Counted from the first letter of the stretch, positions 8,642 to 19,525 are shown. The stretch: 32,701 nt of DNA from Gemmatimonadota bacterium (GCA_027622655.1 JAQBYI010000039.1:1-32701), one strand, 5' to 3'. Notes: generated by a model not told the origin, from the letters alone. Made by a program: numbers and translations.

Positions 8642-9793
8642 TCACGCGGCGACGGGCGTTGCGGTCTCACGCGAGGCGTCCAGATCGCGCATCACCGCCC
8701 ACAGATATCCCACCAGTTCGCGCGCGACGGCGACCACCGCGATCTGCGGGCCGCGCCGCATCGACAGCCGATGGTACATCGTGTACAAGCGCTGTTGCGC
8801 CTTCCACGCGTGCAGCGTGACCGTGGGCGATTGTCCACGCTGGCGCACTGCCAGCGCGGGTCCAATCTTCGGATGCAATCGATAGGCCCAGGCGGCCTGC
8901 ACGAGCACGTGACGGCAATGCGAATTGCCAGCTTTCGTGATCGACCCGCGTCGCTCGCGGGGCCCACTGGAATGCTCGCGTGGCACGAAGCCGAGATACG
9001 CCATGAGTTGCCGTGGCGACGCAAATCGCCGCCAGTCAACGAGCTCCGTGGCCAACACCATCGCGCTGTGGACTTGCAGTCCGCGAAAACACTGCAGCGT
9101 CGCGACGGCGGGGGCGTACGCAGGGGTCAGCGCGAGATCCGCAATGTGATGATCGAGGACGTCGCGCCGCGAGAGCTTGTACTCGAGGAGCGCAAAGTAC
9201 TCGCCAAAGACGAGGCGGTCTTCCGCTGCGAGCGGCGAGGTCGTGCCCGTCAACTGGCGCAACCACGTGTAGTGGGCCGGGCGCCAGTTGACGCCACCGC
9301 GATAGATGAAGCTGCGGCGCGCGAGAAACTTGAGGATGTAGTGCCGCGACTTGACGACTTCGCGCTGCAGCGTCTCCCGGCACCGCACGACATCGCGCAC
9401 GCGCTCTTCGGCTTCGCTCGGAATCCGAATCACCGTGAGTTCACCCGCGCGATACAAGCGCGCGAGCTGGCCCGCGTCGTACTTGTCATGCTTCCGCTGC
9501 ACGCCCGGCTTGGTCGGAATCAGCGACGGCGCGATCACGTCGCAGTGATAGCCCCACCCGTGCATCGCGCGCTGCAACACGTACCCCGCGCCACTCGCTT
9601 CGTAGCACGCCCGGAGTTCCCCGTCCTTCGCGTGGCGTTCAAAGACGCGACGAAGCTTGGCACAGTCATTCGGATACTTGTCGATGCGCGTCGGCGCGGA
9701 TGCGTCCGCCGGGAGGACCGCGATCGTCACGGAGTCCTTGTGGACGTCGAGGCCGAGATAGATGATTGAGGCAGCAGCAGTGGACGATGACAT
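8642..9793 (-). CDS. IS110-family transposase (DEDD recombinase)
   Basis: The intact 383-residue product starts at an ATG with GGAG eight bases upstream. The N-terminal RuvC-like DEDD domain shows IIYLGLDVHKDSVTIAVL, CYEASGAGYVLQRAM, VIAPSLIPTKPG and the HDKYDAGQLARLYRAGEL block. The C-terminal domain shows TLQCFRGLQVHSAMVLATEL, FASPRQLMAYLGFVP and GSITKAGNSHCRHVLVQAA, including the family's conserved catalytic serine region. Members of the family move by an RNA-guided recombination in which a guide RNA from the element's own non-coding end pairs with target and donor. With no internal stop it may be active, unlike its IS1182 neighbour. Confidence 0.93.
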   Translation of the reverse strand: MSSSTAAASIIYLGLDVHKDSVTIAVLPADASAPTRIDKYPNDCAKLRRVFERHAKDGELRACYEASGAGYVLQRAMHGWGYHCDVIAPSLIPTKPGVQRKHDKYDAGQLARLYRAGELTVIRIPSEAEERVRDVVRCRETLQREVVKSRHYILKFLARRSFIYRGGVNWRPAHYTWLRQLTGTTSPLAAEDRLVFGEYFALLEYKLSRRDVLDHHIADLALTPAYAPAVATLQCFRGLQVHSAMVLATELVDWRRFASPRQLMAYLGFVPREHSSGPRERRGSITKAGNSHCRHVLVQAAWAYRLHPKIGPALAVRQRGQSPTVTLHAWKAQQRLYTMYHRLSMRRGPQIAVVAVARELVGYLWAVMRDLDASRETATPVAA

Positions 9794-9857: not shown

Positions 9858-9959
9858 CTACACCGGAGGAACTAACCCACGCAAAACGCGGGGGCCAGCC
9901 CAGTCATAACTTCTAGCGCGCGACGCCATCGAGGCCGCCATCGCGGGTGTCCGGTCCAT
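9858..9959 (-). pseudogene. Interrupted gene coupled to ftsX, cut by the IS110-family element
   Basis: The ftsX stop and a following ATG overlap as TGATG at 9961-9957, a typical translational-coupling arrangement. The frame reads MDRTPAMAASMASRARS for about 17 codons, then enters the inverted repeat of the IS110-family element at 9908 and stops at 9858-9860 after 33 codons. This looks like the first part of a gene once co-translated with ftsX. In many bacteria a periplasmic murein-hydrolase activator (EnvC/M23 type) partners FtsEX; that identity is only a guess, since 17 codons carry no family signature. Confidence 0.5.
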
Positions 9960-10849
9960 CACACGCTCTTGAGATGCCTGCCGACGCTCACCGCGCTGCC
10001 GACAAGGCCGATGAGCGCACCGGCAAAGATCCCGGCGACTGACAGGCGGACGTCAAAGAACTCGGCCGAGAACACCACGCGCCCGATGATCTCGTTGGTG
10101 GCCCACGTGAGGAAAAGTGCGACCGTCCCTCCCATGGCACCTTTCAGTGCGCCCTCAATGAGGAATGGCCGGCGAACGAAGCTGTCGGTCGCACCGACGA
10201 GGCGCATGATCGAGATCTCGCGCGCACGCGCGAGAACGGCCATTCGAATCGTCGAGCCGATGATGATCACCGCAACCAGGGCAAACGTCAAACCGAGTAC
10301 GGTACCGGCAATCGTGGCCACGTTTCGGATCTGGTAAAGCTTTTCGACCCATTCCTCGCCGAACCGCACGTCCTCAATGAACTCGTAGCTTCGAATGCGA
10401 GCCGCCACGGCGCGCACGCTTGCAGGGTCCCGGAAGCCAGGCTTCAGCCGCACGTCAATGGACGCCGGGAGGATGCCTGCGTCGAACACGTCGCTGAACT
10501 CTCCGAGTTCGCTGCGCGCGCGCTCCAGCGCCTGGGTCGGTGTGACGAGCGCCGCGGTCGCCACTTCGGGGAAAGCCTGGATGTCGCCAAGCGCCGCGGT
10601 CGCCACTTCGGGGAAAGCCTGGATGTCGCCAAGCGCCGCGGCTGACGATTCAATTGCCGTGCCGTCGCCTACGAAGGCCCGGATCTCGACGCGATCTTCG
10701 AGCTTGCTCAAAGCCTCGCGAATGTTGAGCGCCACGAGCCCGAATAGTCCGAACGCAAACAGCGAGAATGCGATGGTGGTCACCGAGAGCGCGCTGAGCA
10801 TCGGCGCGCGGCGGAACGCAAGCAGGGCTTCGCGGGTGGCGAGCGTCAT
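9959..10849 (-). CDS. ftsX: Cell-division ABC transporter permease FtsX
   Basis: FtsX is the membrane half of the FtsEX complex, which uses ATP binding to control peptidoglycan hydrolases at the septum. The 296-residue protein has a first membrane helix at about 20-42 (LSVTTIAFSLFAFGLFGLVA), a periplasmic loop, and three C-terminal helices. The cytoplasmic coupling segment RAREISIMRLVGATDSFVRR lies between helices 2 and 3, as in the family. The ATG overlaps the ftsE stop by 4 bp. A perfect 42-bp tandem duplication doubles the 14-residue block ALGDIQAFPEVATA (about 72-85 and 86-99) in the periplasmic loop. Immediately downstream the operon is interrupted by insertion sequences. Confidence 0.92.
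   Translation of the reverse strand: MTLATREALLAFRRAPMLSALSVTTIAFSLFAFGLFGLVALNIREALSKLEDRVEIRAFVGDGTAIESSAAALGDIQAFPEVATAALGDIQAFPEVATAALVTPTQALERARSELGEFSDVFDAGILPASIDVRLKPGFRDPASVRAVAARIRSYEFIEDVRFGEEWVEKLYQIRNVATIAGTVLGLTFALVAVIIIGSTIRMAVLARAREISIMRLVGATDSFVRRPFLIEGALKGAMGGTVALFLTWATNEIIGRVVFSAEFFDVRLSVAGIFAGALIGLVGSAVSVGRHLKSV
10549..10641. repeat. 42-bp tandem duplication in ftsX
   Basis: A 42-bp unit starts at 10549, repeats exactly at 10591, and a third partial copy of 9 bases follows at 10633. The two full copies are identical, which points to a recent slippage or an assembly artefact. The frame is kept. Confidence 0.95.
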
Positions 10850-11529
10850 ACTACCCCCGGGCTATTGTCGCCGGTATCAAAGACGATTCGACCATGGTTG
10901 ATCTCGATGGATCGACAGTCAGAGCGCTTCACGAGGTCCAGGTCGTGCGTTGCCATCATCACAGCTGTTCCGGTGCCGTTGATTTCGCGCAGTAGCTGGA
11001 ATACGCCGCGCGTGGCGCGTTCGTCGAGGTTGCCGGTCGGCTCGTCTGCAAGCAGGACGACGGGATCGTTCGCAAGCGCCCGCGCGATGGCGACGCGCTG
11101 CTGCTCACCGCCCGAAAGCTCCGGCGGAAGCGCGTGCGCCTTGGAGGCGAGGCCGACCTGCGTGAGCAGGCGCGCGACGCGCGGCCTGATCACGGACGCC
11201 GGCGCGCCGGTAACCTCGAGGGCAAAACCGACGTTCGCCTCTACGGTGCGGTCTTCCAGCAGGCGAAAGTCCTGGAATACGACGCCGAGCTTTCGGCGCA
11301 GCCGGGCGACGTCGCGGTGGCGGAGTGTGGCCGAGCTCACGTTCGCGATCTTGACCTCACCGCTCGTCGGAAGCTCGTCGGCGAAAATCAACTTGAGGAT
11401 CGTGCTCTTGCCGGAGCCGCTGGGGCCGGTGAGAAAGACGAACTCGCCCTTGCCGACCCCGAACGTGACGTCATCGAGGGCGACGCCGGTACGCGGATAG
11501 ACTTTTTGAACGCGCGTGAACCGGATCAT
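10846..11529 (-). CDS. ftsE: Cell-division ATP-binding protein FtsE
   Basis: This 227-residue ABC ATPase has Walker A GPSGSGKST near residue 36, the Q-loop in VVFQDFRLLEDRTV (the FRLL.DRTV wording is typical of FtsE), the signature LSGGEQQR, Walker B VVLLADEPTGNLD and the switch histidine in MMATHDLDLV. It energises FtsX at the septum. The ATG start is 27 bp after the trans-sulfuration gene on the same strand, and its stop overlaps the ftsX start. Nothing unusual is visible. Confidence 0.95.
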   Translation of the reverse strand: MIRFTRVQKVYPRTGVALDDVTFGVGKGEFVFLTGPSGSGKSTILKLIFADELPTSGEVKIANVSSATLRHRDVARLRRKLGVVFQDFRLLEDRTVEANVGFALEVTGAPASVIRPRVARLLTQVGLASKAHALPPELSGGEQQRVAIARALANDPVVLLADEPTGNLDERATRGVFQLLREINGTGTAVMMATHDLDLVKRSDCRSIEINHGRIVFDTGDNSPGVV

Positions 11530-11556: not shown

Positions 11557-12714
11557 CTATTTCAGCGCCTGCTCGACGTCCGCGATCAGGTCCTCAGCGT
11601 CTTCCAGGCCGATGGACATCCGGATGAAGCCGTCGGGAACACCGACGCGCGCGCGCTCTTCGCTCGACATCCGTGCGTGCGACGTGTAGCGCGGTTCGCA
11701 TACCAGCGAATCGACGCCGCCGAGGCTGGCTGCGTGCTGGAAAATCTTGAGGCGCTTGAGAAACCGTTCCGTCGTCTTGCCGGCCCCGGACAGCTCAATG
11801 GCCATCATTGCGCCGTATCCGTCGAGCATTGCGCGCGCGATTTCGTGATCGGGGTGATCGATCAGGCCGGGGTAGTGCACTCGCTTGATGTCTTTGTGAT
11901 TCGCGCACCACGTCGCGATTTTCATCGCGTTGTCGTTCTGGCGTCGTATGCGAACGTCCAGCGTCTTCAGGCCCCGCTCGAGGAGCCACGCGGCAAATGG
12001 GTCTGCCGCCTGACCCCAGACGATCAGCTTTTGGAGCACTTCCTGGATGTACGATTCAGTTCCGGCCACGACGCCACACATCGCATCGTGATGCCCATTG
12101 AGGAACTTCGTGCCGGAGTGGATGACCACGTCGGCACCGTGTTCGATTGGCCGCAGATTGATCGGGCTGGCGAATGTCGAATCGACGACAAGCGCGAGGC
12201 CTTCTTCCGTCGTGAGCTGCGAGATCGGGCGCAGGTCGATCACTCGGCACGTCGGGTTGACCGGCGACTCGACGAATACGGCGCGCGTCTCCTTGCGAAG
12301 GCGCTTGCGCCATACGCGGTGCTCGTGCGGATCAACAAGTGTCACGTCGACGCCGTTCCGAGTGAACTCCTCGGTGAGCAGGCGGAGCGTGCCCCCGTAG
12401 ATGTTCGCGCTGGCCAGTAGATGGTCGCCCGGCCGAAGCAGCGCCATCATGGCGCAGGCTGTCGCTCCCATTCCGCTGGAGAGCAACAGTGCCGCCTCCG
12501 CGCCTTCGAGCAGGGCCAGCCGCTTCTGCACGCGCTCGAGGTTGGGCGTGTTGCCGTAGCGCGTGTACAGGAGGCCGGCTTCCGTGCCGATCTCCTGAAT
12601 GAAGTTCACCGACTGCACGAGGGGCGGGGCGACGGGATCGCCCACGTGGTGCGGACCGGCGCCGCCGTGAATCGCATTCGTCGCTCGCGAGGTCGTTTTT
12701 CGGGAGGTGGCCAC
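11557..12714 (-). CDS. Trans-sulfuration PLP enzyme (cystathionine gamma-synthase/lyase type)
   Basis: The 385-residue product belongs to the Cys/Met metabolism PLP-dependent family. It shows the phosphate-binding TRYGNTP (about 51-57), LSSGMGATACAMMAL, VVDSTFASP with the PLP-nitrogen aspartate at 178, and HSGTKFLNGHHD with the PLP lysine at 203. The residue equivalent to the methionine gamma-lyase cysteine is glycine (ANIYGGTLRL), so methionine gamma-lyase is less likely. Between cystathionine gamma-synthase, gamma-lyase, beta-lyase and O-acylhomoserine sulfhydrylase the sequence alone does not decide. The start is GTG at 12714, since no ATG lies nearby in frame. It sits between the 102-residue unknown gene and ftsE, on the same strand. 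Confidence 0.9.
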   Translation of the reverse strand: MATSRKTTSRATNAIHGGAGPHHVGDPVAPPLVQSVNFIQEIGTEAGLLYTRYGNTPNLERVQKRLALLEGAEAALLLSSGMGATACAMMALLRPGDHLLASANIYGGTLRLLTEEFTRNGVDVTLVDPHEHRVWRKRLRKETRAVFVESPVNPTCRVIDLRPISQLTTEEGLALVVDSTFASPINLRPIEHGADVVIHSGTKFLNGHHDAMCGVVAGTESYIQEVLQKLIVWGQAADPFAAWLLERGLKTLDVRIRRQNDNAMKIATWCANHKDIKRVHYPGLIDHPDHEIARAMLDGYGAMMAIELSGAGKTTERFLKRLKIFQHAASLGGVDSLVCEPRYTSHARMSSEERARVGVPDGFIRMSIGLEDAEDLIADVEQALK

Positions 12715-12719
12715 GGGAC

Positions 12720-13028
12720 TCAGGCGTGCGAAGGGTTGATGACGGCGCGTTCAGAGCTGACGCGAACAAGGCGGACGATTTCGCTCGGAGCCAGGCCCAG
12801 GATGTCGCGTGCCACGACACCGCCACGCGGGACCGTCTCGTCGATGCGCACTGTGGCGAGGTCGTGGCGGCGGGGGCCATAGACCCAGACCAGTTCGCCG
12901 TCATGCACCATTCGAAGCTGAGCTTCGTACGCCTGCAGCCGAACTTCAGGGCCTCGATCGGCGTCGCCTGACCGCGTCGCCACGAACCCGACGACCTGCA
13001 GCGGCGGGTTGTACAACGAGCCCATCAC
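12720..13028 (-). CDS. Small conserved-looking protein of unknown function (102 aa)
   Basis: I do not recognise this protein. It starts with GTG (13028) or the adjacent ATG (13025), overlapping the upstream stop as GTGA, so it is almost surely translated together with the STAS-like gene. It has no signal peptide or membrane helix. After residue 25 the pattern is beta-rich (VRLQAYEAQLRMVHDGEL, WVYGPRRHDLATVRID, then VPRGGVVARDILGL), and it ends in SEIVRLVRV. The rhythm of strands with a dGe.V.V turn and a G.v turn recalls double-psi barrel domains such as the molybdopterin-dinucleotide-binding fold, but this is an impression only. Its place at the end of a tightly coupled five-gene block suggests a role with the kinase/STAS proteins. 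Confidence 0.7.
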   Translation of the reverse strand: MMGSLYNPPLQVVGFVATRSGDADRGPEVRLQAYEAQLRMVHDGELVWVYGPRRHDLATVRIDETVPRGGVVARDILGLAPSEIVRLVRVSSERAVINPSHA

Positions 13029-13573
13029 GACACCGCGCCGATCGGCGCAAAGGTGGGCCCGTCGCGCCGCAAGAGGCGGCGGTTCAGCAGCGCCTCAAGC
13101 ACCAGCGTCAGCTCCGAAGCCTCGCGTTCAATCTCACGCGCAAGGTCGTCCACGTGGGTGGACCCGCGCGTGTGCACCAGCTGCCAGATCACGCGTTCAT
13201 CATCGCTAACCGCGCCAACGAGCCGGGCCGCGCCGTCCGCAAAGTGCACGACGAGCGCGAGGCCATGGTGAAGGAGCACATCCTCGATGGCTTCGAGATG
13301 CGCGTCGGTGATCCCGTGGAACACTAGCGACGACGGGCGTGCGCCACGCCGCGCAAGGTCGAGCAGAAGCTTCGCCACGACTTCGTCCGCGCACGAATAG
13401 TCCATCATTCCGATGTGCGTGAAGTCGAGCGTCACCACGTCTTCGGCGCCGACCGAAGCAATCTCGGCCTCAATGCAGCGGCGTACGGCTGCGCCGGTCG
13501 AACGCGTCAGGAGGTTGGCGTACGGAAGGTTGGCCGATACGCGCAGCACTGAACCCACGTCGATGCGCGTCAT
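13025..13573 (-). CDS. STAS-like domain protein with C-terminal winged-helix-like region
   Basis: The start is the ATG at 13573-13571, overlapping the upstream stop as ATGA; a longer open frame to 13825 lies over the upstream gene and is rejected. The 182-residue product has a STAS-like fold: strand VVTLDFTHIGMMDYSCADEV (about 46-65), where family members show a D(F).g....S.s.adEl pattern, followed by LVFHGITDAHLEAIEDVL. The last about 60 residues (DDLAREIEREASELTLVLEA then LLNRRLLRRDGPTFAPIG) look like a small winged helix. It would be a partner or target of the HATPase encoded just upstream, in the manner of anti-anti-sigma proteins. That pairing is inferred from gene order and domain type. 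Confidence 0.75.
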   Translation of the reverse strand: MTRIDVGSVLRVSANLPYANLLTRSTGAAVRRCIEAEIASVGAEDVVTLDFTHIGMMDYSCADEVVAKLLLDLARRGARPSSLVFHGITDAHLEAIEDVLLHHGLALVVHFADGAARLVGAVSDDERVIWQLVHTRGSTHVDDLAREIEREASELTLVLEALLNRRLLRRDGPTFAPIGAVS

Positions 13574-14457
13574 GCGGCCGACTTCTCCGGAATCGTGATC
13601 TGGAGCTGCGCCCCGGCGAACGGAGCCAGGTTGTCTCGGCGCGGAACGTCGTCGTCCCACGGGGGAACCAGCGCGATGCGCGCCGTGCCGCTTCGAACGG
13701 ACAGCTTGCCGTCCCATCGATGCACGTACCCCCTGATCCCCTTCAATCCCTGACCACGGCCGGCGTCCGAATAGCGGCTGACTCCGTTGACGACGGCGGT
13801 TTCGAGCGCGAAACCGTCGTCCCACCGGTCCGTGAGCGGACGGCGCGGGCTTGATTCGAGGGATCGGCGGAAGCCCACGCCGGCATCACACACCGCTATG
13901 ACTACTGCAAGACGACCGCCGAGCCGTTTTCGATACTGATAGACCTGAACCATCACCCAGCCGCCGCGCCCTGCGTGCTCGACGATATTCTGGCACGCTT
14001 CCGAGAGGGCCATGGTGAAGCCCATGGTCGCACGCGAGATGAGATGGAGGCGGTTGGTCAGGATATGCGTCGCCTTGTCCTTGATGCGCTCGACAACTGT
14101 GTGCACGTCGTCGCTCTTGACCACCGGCGTGAGTTCCAGGAGCACGTCGCTCTCTCGCGTCGTGCGCGGACGCGGCACCGTTCCCTGAACGTCGTAGAGT
14201 TCCTCGGCGTGCCGGAAGAATCCGGCGCGGGCCCAGTACGTGACTTTGTCCTGGTCTTCCGGAGGGAGGAACGTGGGCCGCTCGGACCTCGTTTGTGCCA
14301 GCGTGAGCAGCGCGGTCAGTCCGTACGGCGACGCAAACGTGCAATGCCGCGCGTCGACAATAACCTTGGCGTCCACCGGTTGTGCCGCGAGCTGCTCGAG
14401 CACGAGCTCGAACGACAGATCGTCCAGCGACGACGGCACTGTGATGACGGCGGTCAC
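13570..14457 (-). CDS. STAS domain fused to an anti-sigma-kinase-like HATPase
   Basis: Residues 1-95 form a STAS-like domain (KVIVDARHCTFASPYGLTAL near 31-50). Residues about 115-292 form a GHKL ATPase of the RsbW/SpoIIAB type: N-box SEACQNIVEHAG with glutamate 153 and asparagine 157, CDAGVGF at 190-196, and the glycine-rich GRGQGLKGIRGYV at 233-245. There is no phospho-acceptor histidine or dimerisation helix, so it is not a sensor histidine kinase. RsbW-like enzymes phosphorylate STAS proteins on serine and release or hold a partner. Here a STAS unit is both fused to the enzyme and encoded next door. The GTG start overlaps the pfkB-like stop as GTGA. No sigma factor is visible in the window, so the output is unknown. 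Confidence 0.82.
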   Translation of the reverse strand: MTAVITVPSSLDDLSFELVLEQLAAQPVDAKVIVDARHCTFASPYGLTALLTLAQTRSERPTFLPPEDQDKVTYWARAGFFRHAEELYDVQGTVPRPRTTRESDVLLELTPVVKSDDVHTVVERIKDKATHILTNRLHLISRATMGFTMALSEACQNIVEHAGRGGWVMVQVYQYRKRLGGRLAVVIAVCDAGVGFRRSLESSPRRPLTDRWDDGFALETAVVNGVSRYSDAGRGQGLKGIRGYVHRWDGKLSVRSGTARIALVPPWDDDVPRRDNLAPFAGAQLQITIPEKSAA

Positions 14458-15437
14458 GTTGGACTCAGCTCTCCGCGGAGGTGATAGGCGAGTCCGGACG
14501 CTCCCCGGTGCTCGACGTTGCGCGCTGCGGCGCGCATCGCCGCGTGTAACGCATCAGTCATAATATCACCGCGAAGCAGATGCGAGAAGAACGTGGCACC
14601 CCACACGTCTCCACACCCGGTTGGGTCGCCCCCTTGCGCATCGCGTGCAGGTTCTGCAGAGACGAGTGCGGTGCGCACCGGTCCGGACGTCGCGCTCAGC
14701 GCGTGTACGCGCGCCGAATCGAGGTCGTCGAGTCGCGAAAACGTCGGCGCGGCGAAGTAAACGGCGCCTCGCGCGCCCAGCGTCACGACGAGCGCGCTGA
14801 CGCCGGCGGCCAGCGCCATCGCCGAAAGCGCCATCGGATCGCGCGCCATCATGGACATCTCATCTTCATTGACCTGAAGAAAATCCACGCACCGACACCA
14901 CTCTGCGGCGTCGGCAAGCGGTCGCGGCGTGCGCAAACCTCCTTCACCGATATCGAGCACCAATGAATGCAGGTCGCAATAGATCGGCCCGCGGAAGTGC
15001 TGGCGCAGGAGCTGCATCGTCGGCAGATCGAGTTCCCAGCCACTCATCAGGTTGACGTACAGCGCGTCGAGATTGCGCAGCAGCGGCACCAGTCCGGCCC
15101 AGTTCCAGCCCGGGACGCCGCCAGTGAGCACCTCACTCCGTCGCTCGGCGTCCTTATAGAAGAGCTCGACGCGGTTGTTCGGATACGGAACGGCAATTGG
15201 GGTCGCGTCGGGTGCGACTCGGCGCAATGTGCGAAGAAAGTCCCATGCCGACGAGGCGAGGTCGTCGCCGACCTTCACTAGGGGGACAAACTCCCATTTG
15301 TCGTCGAGTGCGGCGTCAAACGCGCAGAGTGCGTAGGTGATACCGCCCCACTCCTCCACCGGCGCGCGCCGGACGTCCCGCCCGTGGATCACATCCCAGA
15401 CGAACGTGCCGATCACGCCGACGCGTCGTTTGGTCAC
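14454..15437 (-). CDS. PfkB-family carbohydrate kinase-like protein
   Basis: The 327-residue product has the ribokinase/PfkB architecture: an N-terminal strand VGVIGTFVWDVIHG, the early GG..YAL segment (EWGGITYALCAFDAAL), central FLQVNEDEMSMM, then VVTLGARGAVYFA, and the C-terminal signature GGDPTGCGDVWGATFF with the catalytic aspartate in GCGD. PfkB enzymes phosphorylate sugars or nucleosides with ATP; the substrate cannot be read from sequence. The GTG start overlaps the ROK-kinase stop and its own stop overlaps the STAS-HATPase start. This coupling to a regulatory ATPase is unusual for a plain catabolic kinase and may mean a sensing role. Confidence 0.85.
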   Translation of the reverse strand: MTKRRVGVIGTFVWDVIHGRDVRRAPVEEWGGITYALCAFDAALDDKWEFVPLVKVGDDLASSAWDFLRTLRRVAPDATPIAVPYPNNRVELFYKDAERRSEVLTGGVPGWNWAGLVPLLRNLDALYVNLMSGWELDLPTMQLLRQHFRGPIYCDLHSLVLDIGEGGLRTPRPLADAAEWCRCVDFLQVNEDEMSMMARDPMALSAMALAAGVSALVVTLGARGAVYFAAPTFSRLDDLDSARVHALSATSGPVRTALVSAEPARDAQGGDPTGCGDVWGATFFSHLLRGDIMTDALHAAMRAAARNVEHRGASGLAYHLRGELSPT

Positions 15438-16417
15438 GCGCCTTTTCCGGTCTCCGCAAGGAATGCGGCGGCCGCGCCGACGACTCCCGCACGGTCGCCT
15501 AGCGTTCCGGGGACGATGCGGACCACGTCAACGGCCGGACGAAACGCGCGACGCCGCACTTCTGCCTGAAGTGGCGCGAGCAACTGCGCACCAGCTCCGG
15601 TCACGCCTCCGGCCAGCACCACGACTTCGGGGTTGAAGATATTCAACAGGTTGGCGATGCCGGCTCCGAGATAGCGCGCCGTGTCGCGCACGACCTCGAT
15701 GGCAAGTGCGTCGCCGTTCCGCGCAGCGTCGAACACGTGCTGCGCGGTCAGGGCCATCGGATCGCCTCCGGCCAAGGCCGAAAGCGACGACGCTCCGTTG
15801 GCATCGAGCGACTCGCGCGCGCGCTCCGCGATCGCAGGGCCGGACGCGTACGCTTCCAGGCATCCATAGTTGCCGCACTTGCACCGCCTCCCGGCGGTCT
15901 CGATGGTCGTGTGGCCGATTTCGCCGGCCACATCACTCGATCCGTGATAGAGTGCGCCGTCGATGATGAGCCCGCCGCCGATGCCGGTGCCGATCGTCAC
16001 GCCCACGACGTTCTTCGCACCCTTGGCGGCGCCAATCCACCACTCCGCAACCGTGGCGCAGTTTGCGTCGTTCTCGAGCGTGCACGGAAGCCCGACTGCG
16101 GCCGCTACCCGGTCGCGGAGTGGGTAGTCGCGCCACCCAAGGTTCGGTGCGAGCACGACCACTCCGTCAATTCGTCGGAGCGGCCCAGGCGCGCCAATCC
16201 CGACGCCAAGAAAATCAGCTTCGGATGCTCCCGTTTCGGCGATCGTCCGAGCTATGACGTCTGCGACGCGGGTCGCGATTCTGCCGACGATATCGTCGGC
16301 GCCGCGCTCGCGCCGCGTTAGCTCGGACGTGAACGTGCGCTGCTGTGCTCCGTCGGTGGACACGGCGCCGACCGCGAAATTTGTGCCACCGAGGTCGACG
16401 CCGATCACGTAGGGCAT
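15434..16417 (-). CDS. ROK-family sugar kinase (glucokinase-like)
   Basis: The 327-residue protein begins YVIGVDLGGTNFAVGAV, the ROK phosphate-1 motif. It contains GVGIGAPGPL, LENDANCATVAEWW with the catalytic aspartate in END, VGVTIGTGIGGGLIIDG, the zinc-binding ROK signature CKCGNYGCLEAYAS, and VVLAGGVTGAG near the end. No helix-turn-helix precedes the kinase domain, so it is an enzyme rather than a ROK repressor. Glucose or a related hexose is the usual substrate; assignment as glucokinase is likely but not certain. It is the first gene of the overlapping five-gene block. Confidence 0.9.
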   Translation of the reverse strand: MPYVIGVDLGGTNFAVGAVSTDGAQQRTFTSELTRRERGADDIVGRIATRVADVIARTIAETGASEADFLGVGIGAPGPLRRIDGVVVLAPNLGWRDYPLRDRVAAAVGLPCTLENDANCATVAEWWIGAAKGAKNVVGVTIGTGIGGGLIIDGALYHGSSDVAGEIGHTTIETAGRRCKCGNYGCLEAYASGPAIAERARESLDANGASSLSALAGGDPMALTAQHVFDAARNGDALAIEVVRDTARYLGAGIANLLNIFNPEVVVLAGGVTGAGAQLLAPLQAEVRRRAFRPAVDVVRIVPGTLGDRAGVVGAAAAFLAETGKGA

Positions 16418-16489: not shown

Positions 16490-17515
16490 TCAGGGAGTGG
16501 TGGTCGAGAGAACGGCATCCATCACGAGTTGCACCCTCAGCTCCTGCATGCACTTCCAGTGGCTGAGCGGGCAGCGCTGCGGACCGTGCGAATCGCACGG
16601 ACGGCAGTCGAGTCCGTCGGTCTGCACAATGGCCTGCCGCTCCGACAACGGTCCGAACCCAAACGCCGGCACCGTTGGGCCAAAGATCGCTACGGTCGGC
16701 GTCCCCATCGCGCTCGCGAGATGCAGCGGTGCGGAGTCGTTCGTCACAACGCCTGCGCACATTTCAAGCAGCGCCGCCGACGCGAGCAGCGACAGCCTGC
16801 CAGTGGCGTCGATGCAACGCTCCGCGCCAACCGCGGCTGCAATTTCGGCCGCCAAAGCTGCGTCGGCTCCACTGCCGAGGACCACGATGCGGTGGAGCGG
16901 GGCGAGGCGCGCCGCGAGAGCGGCGTAGTGCGGCCAACGCTTTGTGGCCCACACACTGCCCGGCGCCAGCGCGATCAGCGTCGCGCCGTCTCGTGGCGTC
17001 CTGGCAAGGAGCGCCGTGACTTCGCTGCGTGCGGCGTCATCGGGGAAGAGTCGCGGCCGGATGGACGCTGGCGAAGGTTTCGGCGCAGACATGCCGGCGG
17101 CGAGACGCCAGAGTCGCTCCGCATGATGCGAGTCGCGCCCGGGCGTTATGCGCTGCGTGTACAGAAAACGCCCCGCGCTCGTCGAGAATCCGACGCGCTT
17201 GCCGACGCGAGCCGTGACGGCCAACGCGGCGCTTCGCCACGAGCCCTGCGCGAGGTAGGCTGCGTCGTATTGCGCGGCCCTCAGTCGGCCACCGAGGCGA
17301 AGCAGTCCGCCGATTCCGGCGTCGGCTCCCCGCTTGTCGTACGCGATGACCGCCCGGATTGCAGGGTTGTTCGCGAGCAGCGGGGCTCCCGTCGGCGTTG
17401 TCACGACGTCCACCGGCCCGCGCGCGGCGAGCGCGGAGATCAGCGGCGTGGTGAGGATCACGTCGCCGAGGAACGAAGTCTGGACGACCAGCGATGACGA
17501 CAAAGGCGGGTTCAC
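16490..17515 (-). CDS. Glycosyltransferase family 9, LPS heptosyltransferase-like
   Basis: The 341-residue protein starts VVQTSFLGDVILTTPLISAL, the ADP-heptose:LPS heptosyltransferase opening. It continues with LIALAPGSVWATKRWP, the nucleotide-sugar motif VTNDSAPLHLASAMGTPTVA followed by IFGPT, and CRPCDSHGPQRCPLSHWKCM near the end, as in WaaF-type enzymes. It would add heptose or a related sugar to the lipopolysaccharide core at the inner membrane, implying a Gram-negative envelope; the exact sugar is inference. The GTG start at 17515 lies at the edge of a palindromic repeat that fills the upstream spacer. Confidence 0.88.
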   Translation of the reverse strand: MNPPLSSSLVVQTSFLGDVILTTPLISALAARGPVDVVTTPTGAPLLANNPAIRAVIAYDKRGADAGIGGLLRLGGRLRAAQYDAAYLAQGSWRSAALAVTARVGKRVGFSTSAGRFLYTQRITPGRDSHHAERLWRLAAGMSAPKPSPASIRPRLFPDDAARSEVTALLARTPRDGATLIALAPGSVWATKRWPHYAALAARLAPLHRIVVLGSGADAALAAEIAAAVGAERCIDATGRLSLLASAALLEMCAGVVTNDSAPLHLASAMGTPTVAIFGPTVPAFGFGPLSERQAIVQTDGLDCRPCDSHGPQRCPLSHWKCMQELRVQLVMDAVLSTTTP

Positions 17516-17621: not shown

Positions 17622-19418
17622 TTAGTCCACCTGAAGCACGGCAAGGAACGCTTCCTGCGGGATTTCCACGCTCCCCACCTGCTTCATCCGCTTTTTCCCT
17701 TCTTTCTGCTTCTCCAGCAGTTTGCGCTTGCGCGATACGTCGCCGCCGTAGCACTTGGCTAGCACGTCTTTGCGCAGCGGTTTCACGGTCGTACGCGCGA
17801 TGACCTTCATCCCGATCGCAGCCTGAATGGCGACGGCAAACAGTTGGCGCGGAATGAGGTCTTTGAGCTTGTCCGCGATCTTTCGACCCCAGTCGTACGC
17901 CTTGTCCGTGTGAATGATCACGCTGAACGCGTCGATGGGCTCGCCGTTGATCATCATGTCGAGCCGCACAAGTTCGCTGCGACGATAGCCGATGATTTCG
18001 TAGTCGAGCGAAGCGTACCCGCGTGAGATGGACTTGAGGCGGTCGAAGAAGTCGAGGATGATTTCGCCGAGCGGAAACTCCCATTCGAACTCGACGCGCG
18101 CCGTGTCGATGTAGTGCATTCCCTTGTATTCGCCGCGCCGATCGGTGCCGAGCGTCATGATCGGCCCGATGTAGTCCGTCGGCGCCATGATGCGCGCCTT
18201 CACATACGGTTCCTCGACGTAGTTGATCACCGCCTGTTCCGGCATCAACGCAGGATTCTCGACGAGAAGGATTGTGCCGTCGGTCTTGTGCACACGGTAC
18301 TCCACCGTCGGCACTGTCGTAACGAGCGAGAGGTCGAACTCGCGTTCGAGGCGCTCGCGCACGATCTCCATGTGCAGGAGTCCGAGGAAGCCGCAACGAA
18401 AGCCAAAGCCGAGCGCGGTGGACGTCTCAGGTTCGTAGTGCAGCGACGCGTCGTTGAGCTGCAGTTTTTCGAGAGCGTCGCGCAAGTCTTCGTACTGCTG
18501 AGTGTCGGTGGGATAAAGGCCGGCGAATACGAACGACTTGACCGCCTGATAGCCGGGGAGTGCCTGCTCGGCGTGGTTGTCGGCGTCGAACACGGTGTCG
18601 CCCGCGCGCGTTTCGCGTACCGAACGCACACTTGCCACCACGTAGCCCACTTCGCCGGCACCGAGCGAGTCGGTTTGCACCTGTCGCAGCTGGTTGTAGC
18701 CGACCTCGGCCACTTCATAGACGCTTTCGCTCACGCCGAACGTGATGCGCGTGCCCTTGCGGAGGGTGCCGTCCACGACGCGAATGCTCGGAATGGCGCC
18801 GCGGTACTTGTCATAGTACGAGTCGTAGATGAGCGCCCGGAGCGGAGCGTCCGGGTTCCCCTTCGGAGGTGGCACCTTTCGGATGATCTCTTCGAGCAGT
18901 TCGGGAATGCCGAGCCCTTCCTTGGCGCTCACCAAGAGAATCTCTTCCGGCTTGCACCCGAGCAGGCCAACCACCTCGTCGCGGCGCTTCTCCGGCTCTG
19001 CGCCGGGGAGGTCAATCTTGTTCAGGATCGGGATGATCTCGAGGCCGGCTTCCATGGCGAGGAAGAGGTTTGAGAGCGTCTGCGCCTGGATCCCCTGCGA
19101 GGCGTCAACCACGAGGATGGCGCCTTCGCACGCGGCGAGTGAGCGCGAGACTTCGTATGTAAAGTCCACGTGACCCGGCGTGTCGATCAGGTTCAGCTCG
19201 TACGACTGGCCGCCCTTGGCGGCGTAGGTCATCCGCACGGCGTTGAGCTTGATCGTGATGCCGCGTTCACGCTCCAGGTCGAGCGTGTCGAGGACCTGCG
19301 CCTTCATTTCGCGCTTTTTGAGCATGCCCGTGGCTTCGATCAGCCGGTCCGCGAGGGTGGACTTGCCGTGATCGATATGGGCAACGATGCAAAAATTTCG
19401 GATATGGTCGAGCTGCAC
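17622..19418 (-). CDS. lepA: Translation elongation factor 4 (LepA)
   Basis: This 598-residue translational GTPase shows G1 [14 protein letters not shown], switch region RERGITIK, G3 [12 protein letters not shown] and G4 NKIDLPGA. The LepA-specific C-terminal domain contains [39 protein letters not shown] and [16 protein letters not shown]4 acts on stalled or mistranslocated ribosomes. Length is normal for the family. The start is GTG at 19418. It is the first gene of the leftward series and is divergent from the DUF58 gene, with 107 bp between them for both promoters. Confidence 0.97.
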
Positions 19419-19525
19419 GACGGTTGGGTTCGGGACGGCGAGGCACCAATCGCTTAATGATAGTCGCGCGTACTACAGAGACCGCCGTGCCGCGCGACAA
19501 TCCTGCCACTAGTTTTGACTTTCCT

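What the first reader, a model, noticed from the sequence alone, without database searches (positions are those of the whole stretch)
12720..16417. Five-gene overlapping block joining two sugar kinases to an anti-sigma-like STAS/HATPase module
ROK kinase, PfkB-like kinase, STAS-HATPase fusion, STAS-like/winged-helix protein and a 102-residue unknown protein are joined by four 4-bp overlaps (GTGA, GTGA, ATGA, GTGA). RsbW-like kinases normally pair with STAS proteins and sigma factors; here they are coupled to carbohydrate kinases. One reading is a partner-switch in which sugar phosphorylation status controls the STAS/HATPase pair, with the winged-helix-like or barrel protein as output. I know of no described system with this composition.
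Basis: partly seen in the sequence, partly recalled or inferred. Interest (0 to 1): 0.8.

Follow-up and report, generated by a model that had tools for sequence, protein, structure and literature searches.

The report
Class-wide CapKS-like kinase–STAS gene pair
Almost every bacterium in the main class of the Gemmatimonadota carries one copy of a two-gene protein-kinase/target switch, related to a pair known to turn on phage-defence genes, but here it sits in a housekeeping operon and has apparently lost the parts that sense DNA damage and bind DNA, so it probably controls something new.

Summary
Five genes (ROK, PfkB-like kinase, STAS-GHKL "SH", STAS-wHTH "SW", 102-aa protein) are joined by four exact 4-bp overlaps, inside a longer operon lepA-hept-ROK-PfkB-SH-SW-U102-CGS-ftsE-ftsX. 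SH is single copy in 142 of 150 phylum genomes. SH-SW lie side by side in 60 of 60 loci read, across seven families. SH-SW is not an undescribed composition: it matches CapK-CapS (EMBO J 2026, PMC13373217) in architecture, gene order and sequence, and the phosphorylated CapS Ser54 aligns with SW Ser60 (invariant 61/61). The sugar kinases are separable: three genomes keep SH-SW with no PfkB of this family, and one deep genome has LepA-ROK-PfkB-CGS without SH-SW. The pair has diverged from CapKS at both ends. CapK's ssDNA-sensing Trp68 is never aromatic (0/23). CapS DNA contacts are replaced, the wing tip is deleted, and the wHTH is acidic, poorly conserved and shortened or absent in 6 loci. Best reading: SH phosphorylates SW Ser60, and SW now acts through protein contact rather than as a DNA-bound repressor. 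Kinase-substrate step likely; signal and output unknown. New variant of a known kind.

The parts
15434..16417 (-). ROK-family glucokinase-like kinase; conserved neighbour, not obligate
   Evidence: PF00480 E 6.5e-74; TIGR00744 253.8 bits against cut-off 260.35; ROK-PfkB adjacent in 53 of 60 loci
14454..15437 (-). PfkB-like kinase of an unusual subfamily (WGGIxYAL, NNRVEL, GDPTGCGDVWGA); catalytic Asp invariant
   Evidence: PF00294 E 1.2e-10; Asp277 58/58; absent from G110, G122, G035, which keep SH-SW
13570..14457 (-). SH: STAS-GHKL kinase (CapK/VapK-like, without the N-terminal HTH of CapK)
   Evidence: Model pLDDT 88; SpoIIAB Z 12.4 over 135 residues; hhalign to CapK E 1.4e-10; single copy in 142/150 genomes
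14173..14457 (-). [quoted passage not shown] consensus PYGL where phosphorylatable STAS domains have Ser
   Evidence: TM1442 anti-sigma-antagonist Z 9.4 over residues 1-93; alignment
13579..14151 (-). SH GHKL ATP-binding domain (residues 103-293); N-box E153/N157, G1 DxGxG 191-195, G2 GRGQG 233-237
   Evidence: E153, N157, D191, G193, G195, G233, G235, G237 all 61/61; E153/N157 align with CapK E214/N218
13025..13573 (-). SW: STAS-wHTH protein (CapS-like), predicted substrate of SH
13394..13396 (-). SW Ser60 codon, predicted phosphorylation site, in invariant D-x-S-C-A-D-E
   Evidence: Ser 61/61; aligns with CapS Ser54, phosphorylated by CapK (PMC13373217)
13040..13213 (-). SW C-terminal winged helix, probably no longer DNA binding
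   Evidence: MarR-like fold Z 10; acidic, 25% mean pairwise identity, shortened or absent in 6 of 60 loci; CapS DNA contacts not kept
12720..13028 (-). U102: 102-aa protein present only in the window's family, possibly a small beta-barrel
   Evidence: Only a sub-threshold Molydop_binding hit, E 0.003; tblastn finds it in 20/20 f1 loci and none outside
11557..12714 (-). Cystathionine gamma-synthase-family PLP enzyme, downstream operon member
   Evidence: PF01053 E 8.6e-121; follows SW or U102 in most loci
10846..11529 (-). ftsE
   Evidence: TIGR02673 above cut-off
9959..10849 (-). ftsX
   Evidence: PF02687 and PF18075 above cut-off
16490..17515 (-). Lipopolysaccharide heptosyltransferase, upstream operon member, variable
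   Evidence: TIGR02195 above cut-off; found in 30 of 60 loci
17622..19418 (-). lepA (EF4), head of the conserved block
   Evidence: Upstream of ROK/PfkB/SH-SW in most loci; directly before SH-SW in G110 and G122
19454..19463 (-). Conserved -10-like element (CTATnnTTAA) upstream of lepA, candidate operon promoter
   Evidence: Most conserved stretch of the lepA upstream alignment; no counterpart upstream of ROK

Best explanation
SH and SW are a kinase-substrate pair related to CapK-CapS and VapK-VapS, vertically inherited as a core gene pair of this class. SH (STAS-GHKL) binds ATP and phosphorylates SW on Ser60, and phosphorylation changes what the SW STAS face can bind. Unlike CapS, SW most likely does not work as a DNA-bound repressor: its winged helix has lost the CapS DNA contacts, is acidic and is dispensable. 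The output is then a protein contact, as in VapS-VapC or classical partner switching. The signal is unlikely to be ssDNA sensed in the CapK way. ROK, PfkB, CGS and FtsEX are co-transcribed neighbours; ROK and PfkB are not required for the pair. Shown by sequence: architecture, homology, invariant catalytic and phospho-site residues, conserved adjacency. Inferred: kinase activity, protein output. Unknown: signal and target.
For: Single copy in 142/150 genomes. SH-SW adjacent in 60/60 loci. Both are present or both missing in the genomes tested; the one exception, G131, shows only an SW end that runs into a contig end. Profile matches to CapK (E 1.4e-10) and CapS (E 7e-5), stronger to a Nostoc plasmid pair (9e-24 and 5e-9). 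SpoIIAB-like GHKL fold Z 12.4 and STAS Z 9.4. SW Ser60 and SH E153/N157 61/61. SH-SW have the highest residual distance correlation given LepA, 0.42. SW wHTH net charge mean -1.7 against +3 to +4 in CapS, Nostoc and Janibacter; 25% pairwise identity against 44.5% for the STAS part; shortened or absent in L054, L061, L062, L064, L057, L037. CapS N145 -> E/R/A/D, K151 -> mostly E/D, G169-G170 deleted 23/23; CapK W68 aromatic 0/23. Pair kept without ROK or PfkB in the locus in G110.
Against: No biochemistry was done. Alignment around CapK W68 is uncertain, and SH has its own conserved aromatic (W/F41) and basic residues (R178, R182) near the predicted groove. A wHTH can bind DNA with other residues; some lineages (L071, L072, L073, L077) have a basic wHTH. 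No protein target was identified. The distance correlation was not permutation tested.
Confidence: 0.5

Rival explanations
1. SW is a DNA-binding autorepressor as CapS is: it represses its own operon from the lepA promoter, and SH phosphorylation of Ser60 releases it.
For: The wHTH fold is predicted with high confidence and is MarR-like. CapS works this way. The nearest relative, the Nostoc pair, lies directly upstream of a Prok-E2/ThiF/JAB operon and keeps a basic wHTH.
Against: DNA-contact residues and wing lost, domain acidic and shortened in some lineages. No conserved palindrome seen upstream of lepA or ROK; only a promoter-like element.
Confidence: 0.25
2. One reading: phosphorylation of a sugar by ROK/PfkB sets the state of the STAS/HATPase pair.
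For: Tight coupling of PfkB and SH (4-bp overlap in 44 of 57 loci) and of ROK and PfkB. ROK-SH residual distance correlation 0.36.
Against: Three genomes keep SH-SW without PfkB, two of them (G110, G122) with LepA directly before SH-SW and no ROK in the locus. G097 has ROK-PfkB without SH-SW. PfkB-SH 0.09 and PfkB-SW -0.02.
Confidence: 0.08
3. Classical anti-sigma switch: SH sequesters a sigma factor and SW is the anti-anti-sigma.
For: SH GHKL is closest in fold to SpoIIAB and RsbW.
Against: No match reaches the SigB/F/G cut-off in 19 genomes and no sigma gene recurs at the locus. The window's genome has a separate canonical STAS-RsbW-PP2C set. G110 has no SpoIIE-type phosphatase.
Confidence: 0.07
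4. SH is an ATP-binding scaffold rather than a kinase, and SW is its constitutive partner.
For: The C-terminal GHKL region of SH carries a conserved stretch (RSGTARIAxVPxWDD) that lies outside the ATP-site motifs and has no assigned role.
Against: Invariant N-box Glu/Asn and an invariant acceptor-type Ser in SW.
Confidence: 0.1

Closest known systems
CapK-CapS (controller of associated pathways; PMC13373217, PDB 9Z71-9Z73)
   Same: STAS-GHKL kinase gene immediately followed by STAS-wHTH gene; profile homology of both proteins; phospho-Ser54 = SW Ser60; active-site E214/N218 = SH E153/N157
   Different: No N-terminal HTH on SH; ssDNA-sensing Trp68 not kept; CapS DNA-contact residues and wing not kept; vertically inherited core operon, not upstream of an immune operon
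VapK-VapS-VapC (same paper)
   Same: Kinase is STAS-GHKL without HTH, as SH; substrate acts by protein contact, as proposed for SW
   Different: No VapC/PIN gene follows SW in the window; SW carries a wHTH remnant in most lineages
SpoIIAB-SpoIIAA / RsbW-RsbV partner switches
   Same: GHKL fold and N-box; phospho-Ser position in the STAS motif
   Different: SH has its own STAS domain, SW a wHTH; no cognate sigma factor or PP2C at the locus
Plasmid pairs of Nostoc linckia NIES-25 (AP018224) and Janibacter melonis (NZ_CP046475)
   Same: STAS-GHKL without HTH followed by STAS-wHTH; Nostoc is the closest relative found outside the phylum
   Different: Basic wHTH with CapS-like recognition residues; Nostoc lies directly upstream of a Prok-E2/ThiF/JAB operon, Janibacter near a ThiF gene

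Membership tests
CapK-CapS | STAS-GHKL kinase gene immediately followed by STAS-wHTH gene | tested here: met
   60/60 loci; models; folds
CapK-CapS | Acceptor Ser in the STAS domain (CapS Ser54) and GHKL catalytic residues | tested here: met
   SW Ser60, SH E153 and N157 all 61/61
CapK-CapS | N-terminal HTH on the kinase | tested here: not met
   SH begins at the STAS domain; in CapK this domain was dispensable for signalling
CapK-CapS | ssDNA-sensing aromatic (W68; F54 in VapK) | tested here: not met
   0/23 aromatic at the aligned column; the alignment here is uncertain
CapK-CapS | DNA-binding wHTH residues (N145, K151, G169-G170) | tested here: not met
   E/R/A/D, mostly E/D, deleted 23/23; acidic and partly absent domain
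CapK-CapS | Located directly upstream of an immune operon | tested here: not met
   Neighbours are lepA, ROK, PfkB, CGS, ftsEX; no convincing PADLOC hit among them
CapK-CapS | Kinase phosphorylates the STAS Ser | not testable with these tools
   Needs purified proteins
VapKSC | VapC/PIN toxin gene after the STAS gene | tested here: not met
   SW is followed by U102, CGS or ftsE in most loci; U102, CGS and FtsE of the window match no PIN model
RsbW/SpoIIAB anti-sigma partner switch | Cognate SigB/F/G-type sigma factor | tested here: not met
   None above TIGR02980 cut-off in 19 genomes, none recurring at the locus
RsbW/SpoIIAB anti-sigma partner switch | SpoIIE/RsbU-type PP2C phosphatase for the phospho-STAS protein | tested here: inconclusive
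   Present elsewhere in most genomes; in the window's genome it lies next to a separate canonical RsbW. Absent in G110, which keeps SH-SW

The most novel reading that the evidence does not exclude
A CapKS-type kinase-STAS switch became fixed in the ancestor of most of the class as a core housekeeping regulator with a new, non-ssDNA signal and a protein rather than DNA output, acting on a process linked to the lepA-ftsEX operon (envelope, division or central sugar phosphorylation).
Probability: 0.35. Interest if true: 0.75.

Novelty: new variant of a known kind. Interest (0 to 1): 0.55.

Why it matters
CapK-CapS was described in 2026 as an accessory regulator of phage-defence operons. Here a clearly related pair is a single-copy, vertically inherited core gene pair across a bacterial class, kept even in 2-Mb genomes that have lost its sugar-kinase neighbours, and both its input and output surfaces look rewired. 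It would show that this immunity-type switch has been domesticated for housekeeping use, and it names one serine and two genes to test for an unknown core function in a poorly studied phylum.

Tried and rejected
Sugar-kinase control as the core idea: rejected on gene losses. Sigma-factor switch: no supporting gene. Riboswitch or RNA element in the window: none at Rfam gathering threshold. Promoters and terminators by consensus scan: no excess of promoter-like sites over shuffles and only a marginal one of terminator-like sites. CapS-like operators: no conserved palindrome seen by eye upstream of lepA or ROK; no formal palindrome search over the alignment was run. Pfam calls for SW and the STAS part of SH were too weak alone and were replaced by profile and fold comparison. 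Foldseek against PDB listed general MarR and STAS folds and not CapS; that library ends in April 2026 and absence there is not evidence. The genome-contig scan returned only Gemmatimonadota among its 80 kept loci (one, L125, is titled just 'bacterium'), so distribution in other phyla is known only from plasmids and phages; a viral-contig scan found no relative. A PADLOC DrmA model matches SH (E 1e-9) and CapK (8e-5) over the STAS-GHKL region only, so it was not taken as DISARM.

Full report
OBSERVATION. The five genes lie exactly where stated on the - strand, joined by 4-bp overlaps GTGA, GTGA, ATGA, GTGA. Translations are P0001-P0005. Pfam and NCBIfam give ROK (E 6.5e-74), PfkB (1.2e-10), HATPase_c (7.8e-6) and sub-threshold STAS_2, with nothing solid for the 102-residue protein. 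The transcription unit is probably longer: a cystathionine-gamma-synthase-family gene follows after 5 bp, then ftsE and ftsX; heptosyltransferase and lepA precede.

CONSERVATION. The STAS-HATPase protein (SH) is found in 142 of 150 genomes drawn from the phylum, essentially once each, at 38-78% identity; one of those 142 (G001, E 9e-4) is a marginal hit that the profile search did not confirm. The six sampled genomes of family f9, outside the class, lack it by profile. I read 60 loci from seven families. The order is LepA-(Hept)-ROK-PfkB-SH-SW-(U102)-CGS-FtsE-FtsX, with losses. SH-SW are neighbours in 60/60, though with 0.4-1.3 kb between them in three. PfkB-SH are adjacent in 57, with exactly 4 bp overlap in 44. 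U102 occurs only in the window's family (20/20 loci against 0/40). The SH tree recovers families f1, f2 and f7 as single groups and all groups with 6 changes against a shuffled mean of 33, as expected for vertical descent.

WHAT IS CORE. Profile searches show that G110, G122 and G035 have no PfkB of this family but keep SH and SW; G032 has PfkB on another contig; G097 has LepA-ROK-PfkB-CGS with no SH or SW. In G110 and G122, 2-Mb genomes, LepA is followed directly by SH-SW. G131, scored as lacking SH, ends its contig inside SW, so it is uninformative. The unit is therefore SH-SW, and the kinases are frequent neighbours. Distances corrected for LepA agree: SH-SW 0.42, SH-ROK 0.36, SH-PfkB 0.09, PfkB-SW -0.02 (38 loci, no permutation test).

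WHAT THE PAIR IS. AlphaFold models are confident (SW pLDDT 92, SH 88). The SH GHKL domain is closest to SpoIIAB (Z 12.4, 135 residues, rmsd 3.2) and its N-terminal part to a STAS protein (Z 9.4). SW is STAS plus a MarR-like winged helix. The best sequence hit of the SW profile in the PDB is 9Z71 (E 0.029), which the depositors' paper identifies as CapS of Enterobacter roggenkampii (PMC13373217). [quoted passage not shown] I recovered the CapK and CapS genes and compared profiles: SH-CapK E 1.4e-10, SW-CapS E 7e-5. A Nostoc plasmid pair is closer (9e-24 and 5e-9); its pair lies directly upstream of an operon encoding a Prok-E2/ThiF/JAB protein, the kind of operon that CapKS controls.

WHERE IT DEPARTS. 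SW Ser60, aligned with CapS Ser54, and the motif D-x-S-C-A-D-E are invariant in 61 of 61; SH E153 and N157, aligned with CapK E214 and N218, likewise. But CapK Trp68, required for ssDNA activation, corresponds mostly to Ser/Thr/Asn/Gln and is aromatic in 0 of 23; CapS N145 and K151 are replaced, mostly by acidic residues at 151, and the Gly-Gly wing tip is deleted in 23 of 23. The SW winged helix has mean net charge -1.7 against +3 to +4 in CapS, Nostoc and Janibacter, 25% mean pairwise identity against 44.5% for its STAS domain, and is shortened or absent in six loci, four of which form one clade. No palindrome was seen in aligned upstream regions; the only conserved element is promoter-like and lies before lepA.

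MECHANISM. Best supported: SH phosphorylates SW Ser60 (inferred from homology and invariance), altering what the SW STAS face binds. Because the DNA-binding features have decayed while the STAS face is the most constrained part of SW, the output is more likely a protein contact than repression of a promoter. The target and the signal are not known. A conserved aromatic (W/F41) and basic residues R178 and R182 in SH could still form a ligand groove, so some nucleic-acid signal is not excluded. The system is separate from the canonical STAS-RsbW-PP2C set elsewhere in the window's genome.

KNOWN OR NEW. The composition is not undescribed: the signalling pair belongs with CapKS and VapKS by homology and architecture. 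It fails four CapKS features tested here (kinase HTH, ssDNA aromatic, DNA-contact residues, immune-operon context), so it should be filed as a related variant, not as CapKS. I found no mention of Gemmatimonadota in that paper, and literature searches returned no description of this core pair.

LIMITS. Only one genome-contig scan was available and its kept loci were all close relatives, so the distribution in other phyla is poorly sampled. No complex prediction was possible. Activity, signal and target all need experiments.

Noticed in passing
window 10548-10641: Exact 42-bp in-frame tandem duplication inside ftsX (14 residues repeated, protein 296 aa against 281-291 in 35 orthologues, none of which has such a repeat).
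   Followed up: partly
window 8642-9793 (-): 383-aa ORF that looks like an IS110-type transposase, next to ftsX.
   Followed up: no
L193 5417-6793 (+): Single-chain STAS-GHKL-STAS protein (458 aa) ending in a DUF4325-like SSSFADEFLGKL motif: a fused version of the same kinase-substrate logic in another family of the class.
   Followed up: partly
L192 5710-6633 (-): Further STAS-GHKL kinase (307 aa) without an adjacent SW homologue found by tblastn.
   Followed up: partly
L196 4664-6780 (-): Canonical STAS (IDSSGLG), RsbW and PP2C genes in a row in the window's own genome.
   Followed up: partly
L199 2914-3765 (+): Gordonia phage Phishy gp32, annotated histidine kinase, is a STAS-GHKL protein of the SH kind close to the integrase and immunity repressor genes.
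   Followed up: partly
window 13570-14457 (-): PADLOC DrmA model PDLC02567 matches SH residues 66-264 (E 1.2e-9) and CapK (8.5e-5), suggesting that some DISARM DrmA proteins carry a STAS-GHKL-like region.
   Followed up: no
window 19454-19463 (-): Conserved CTATnnTTAA element before lepA in the genus, a candidate -10 form for this phylum.
   Followed up: partly
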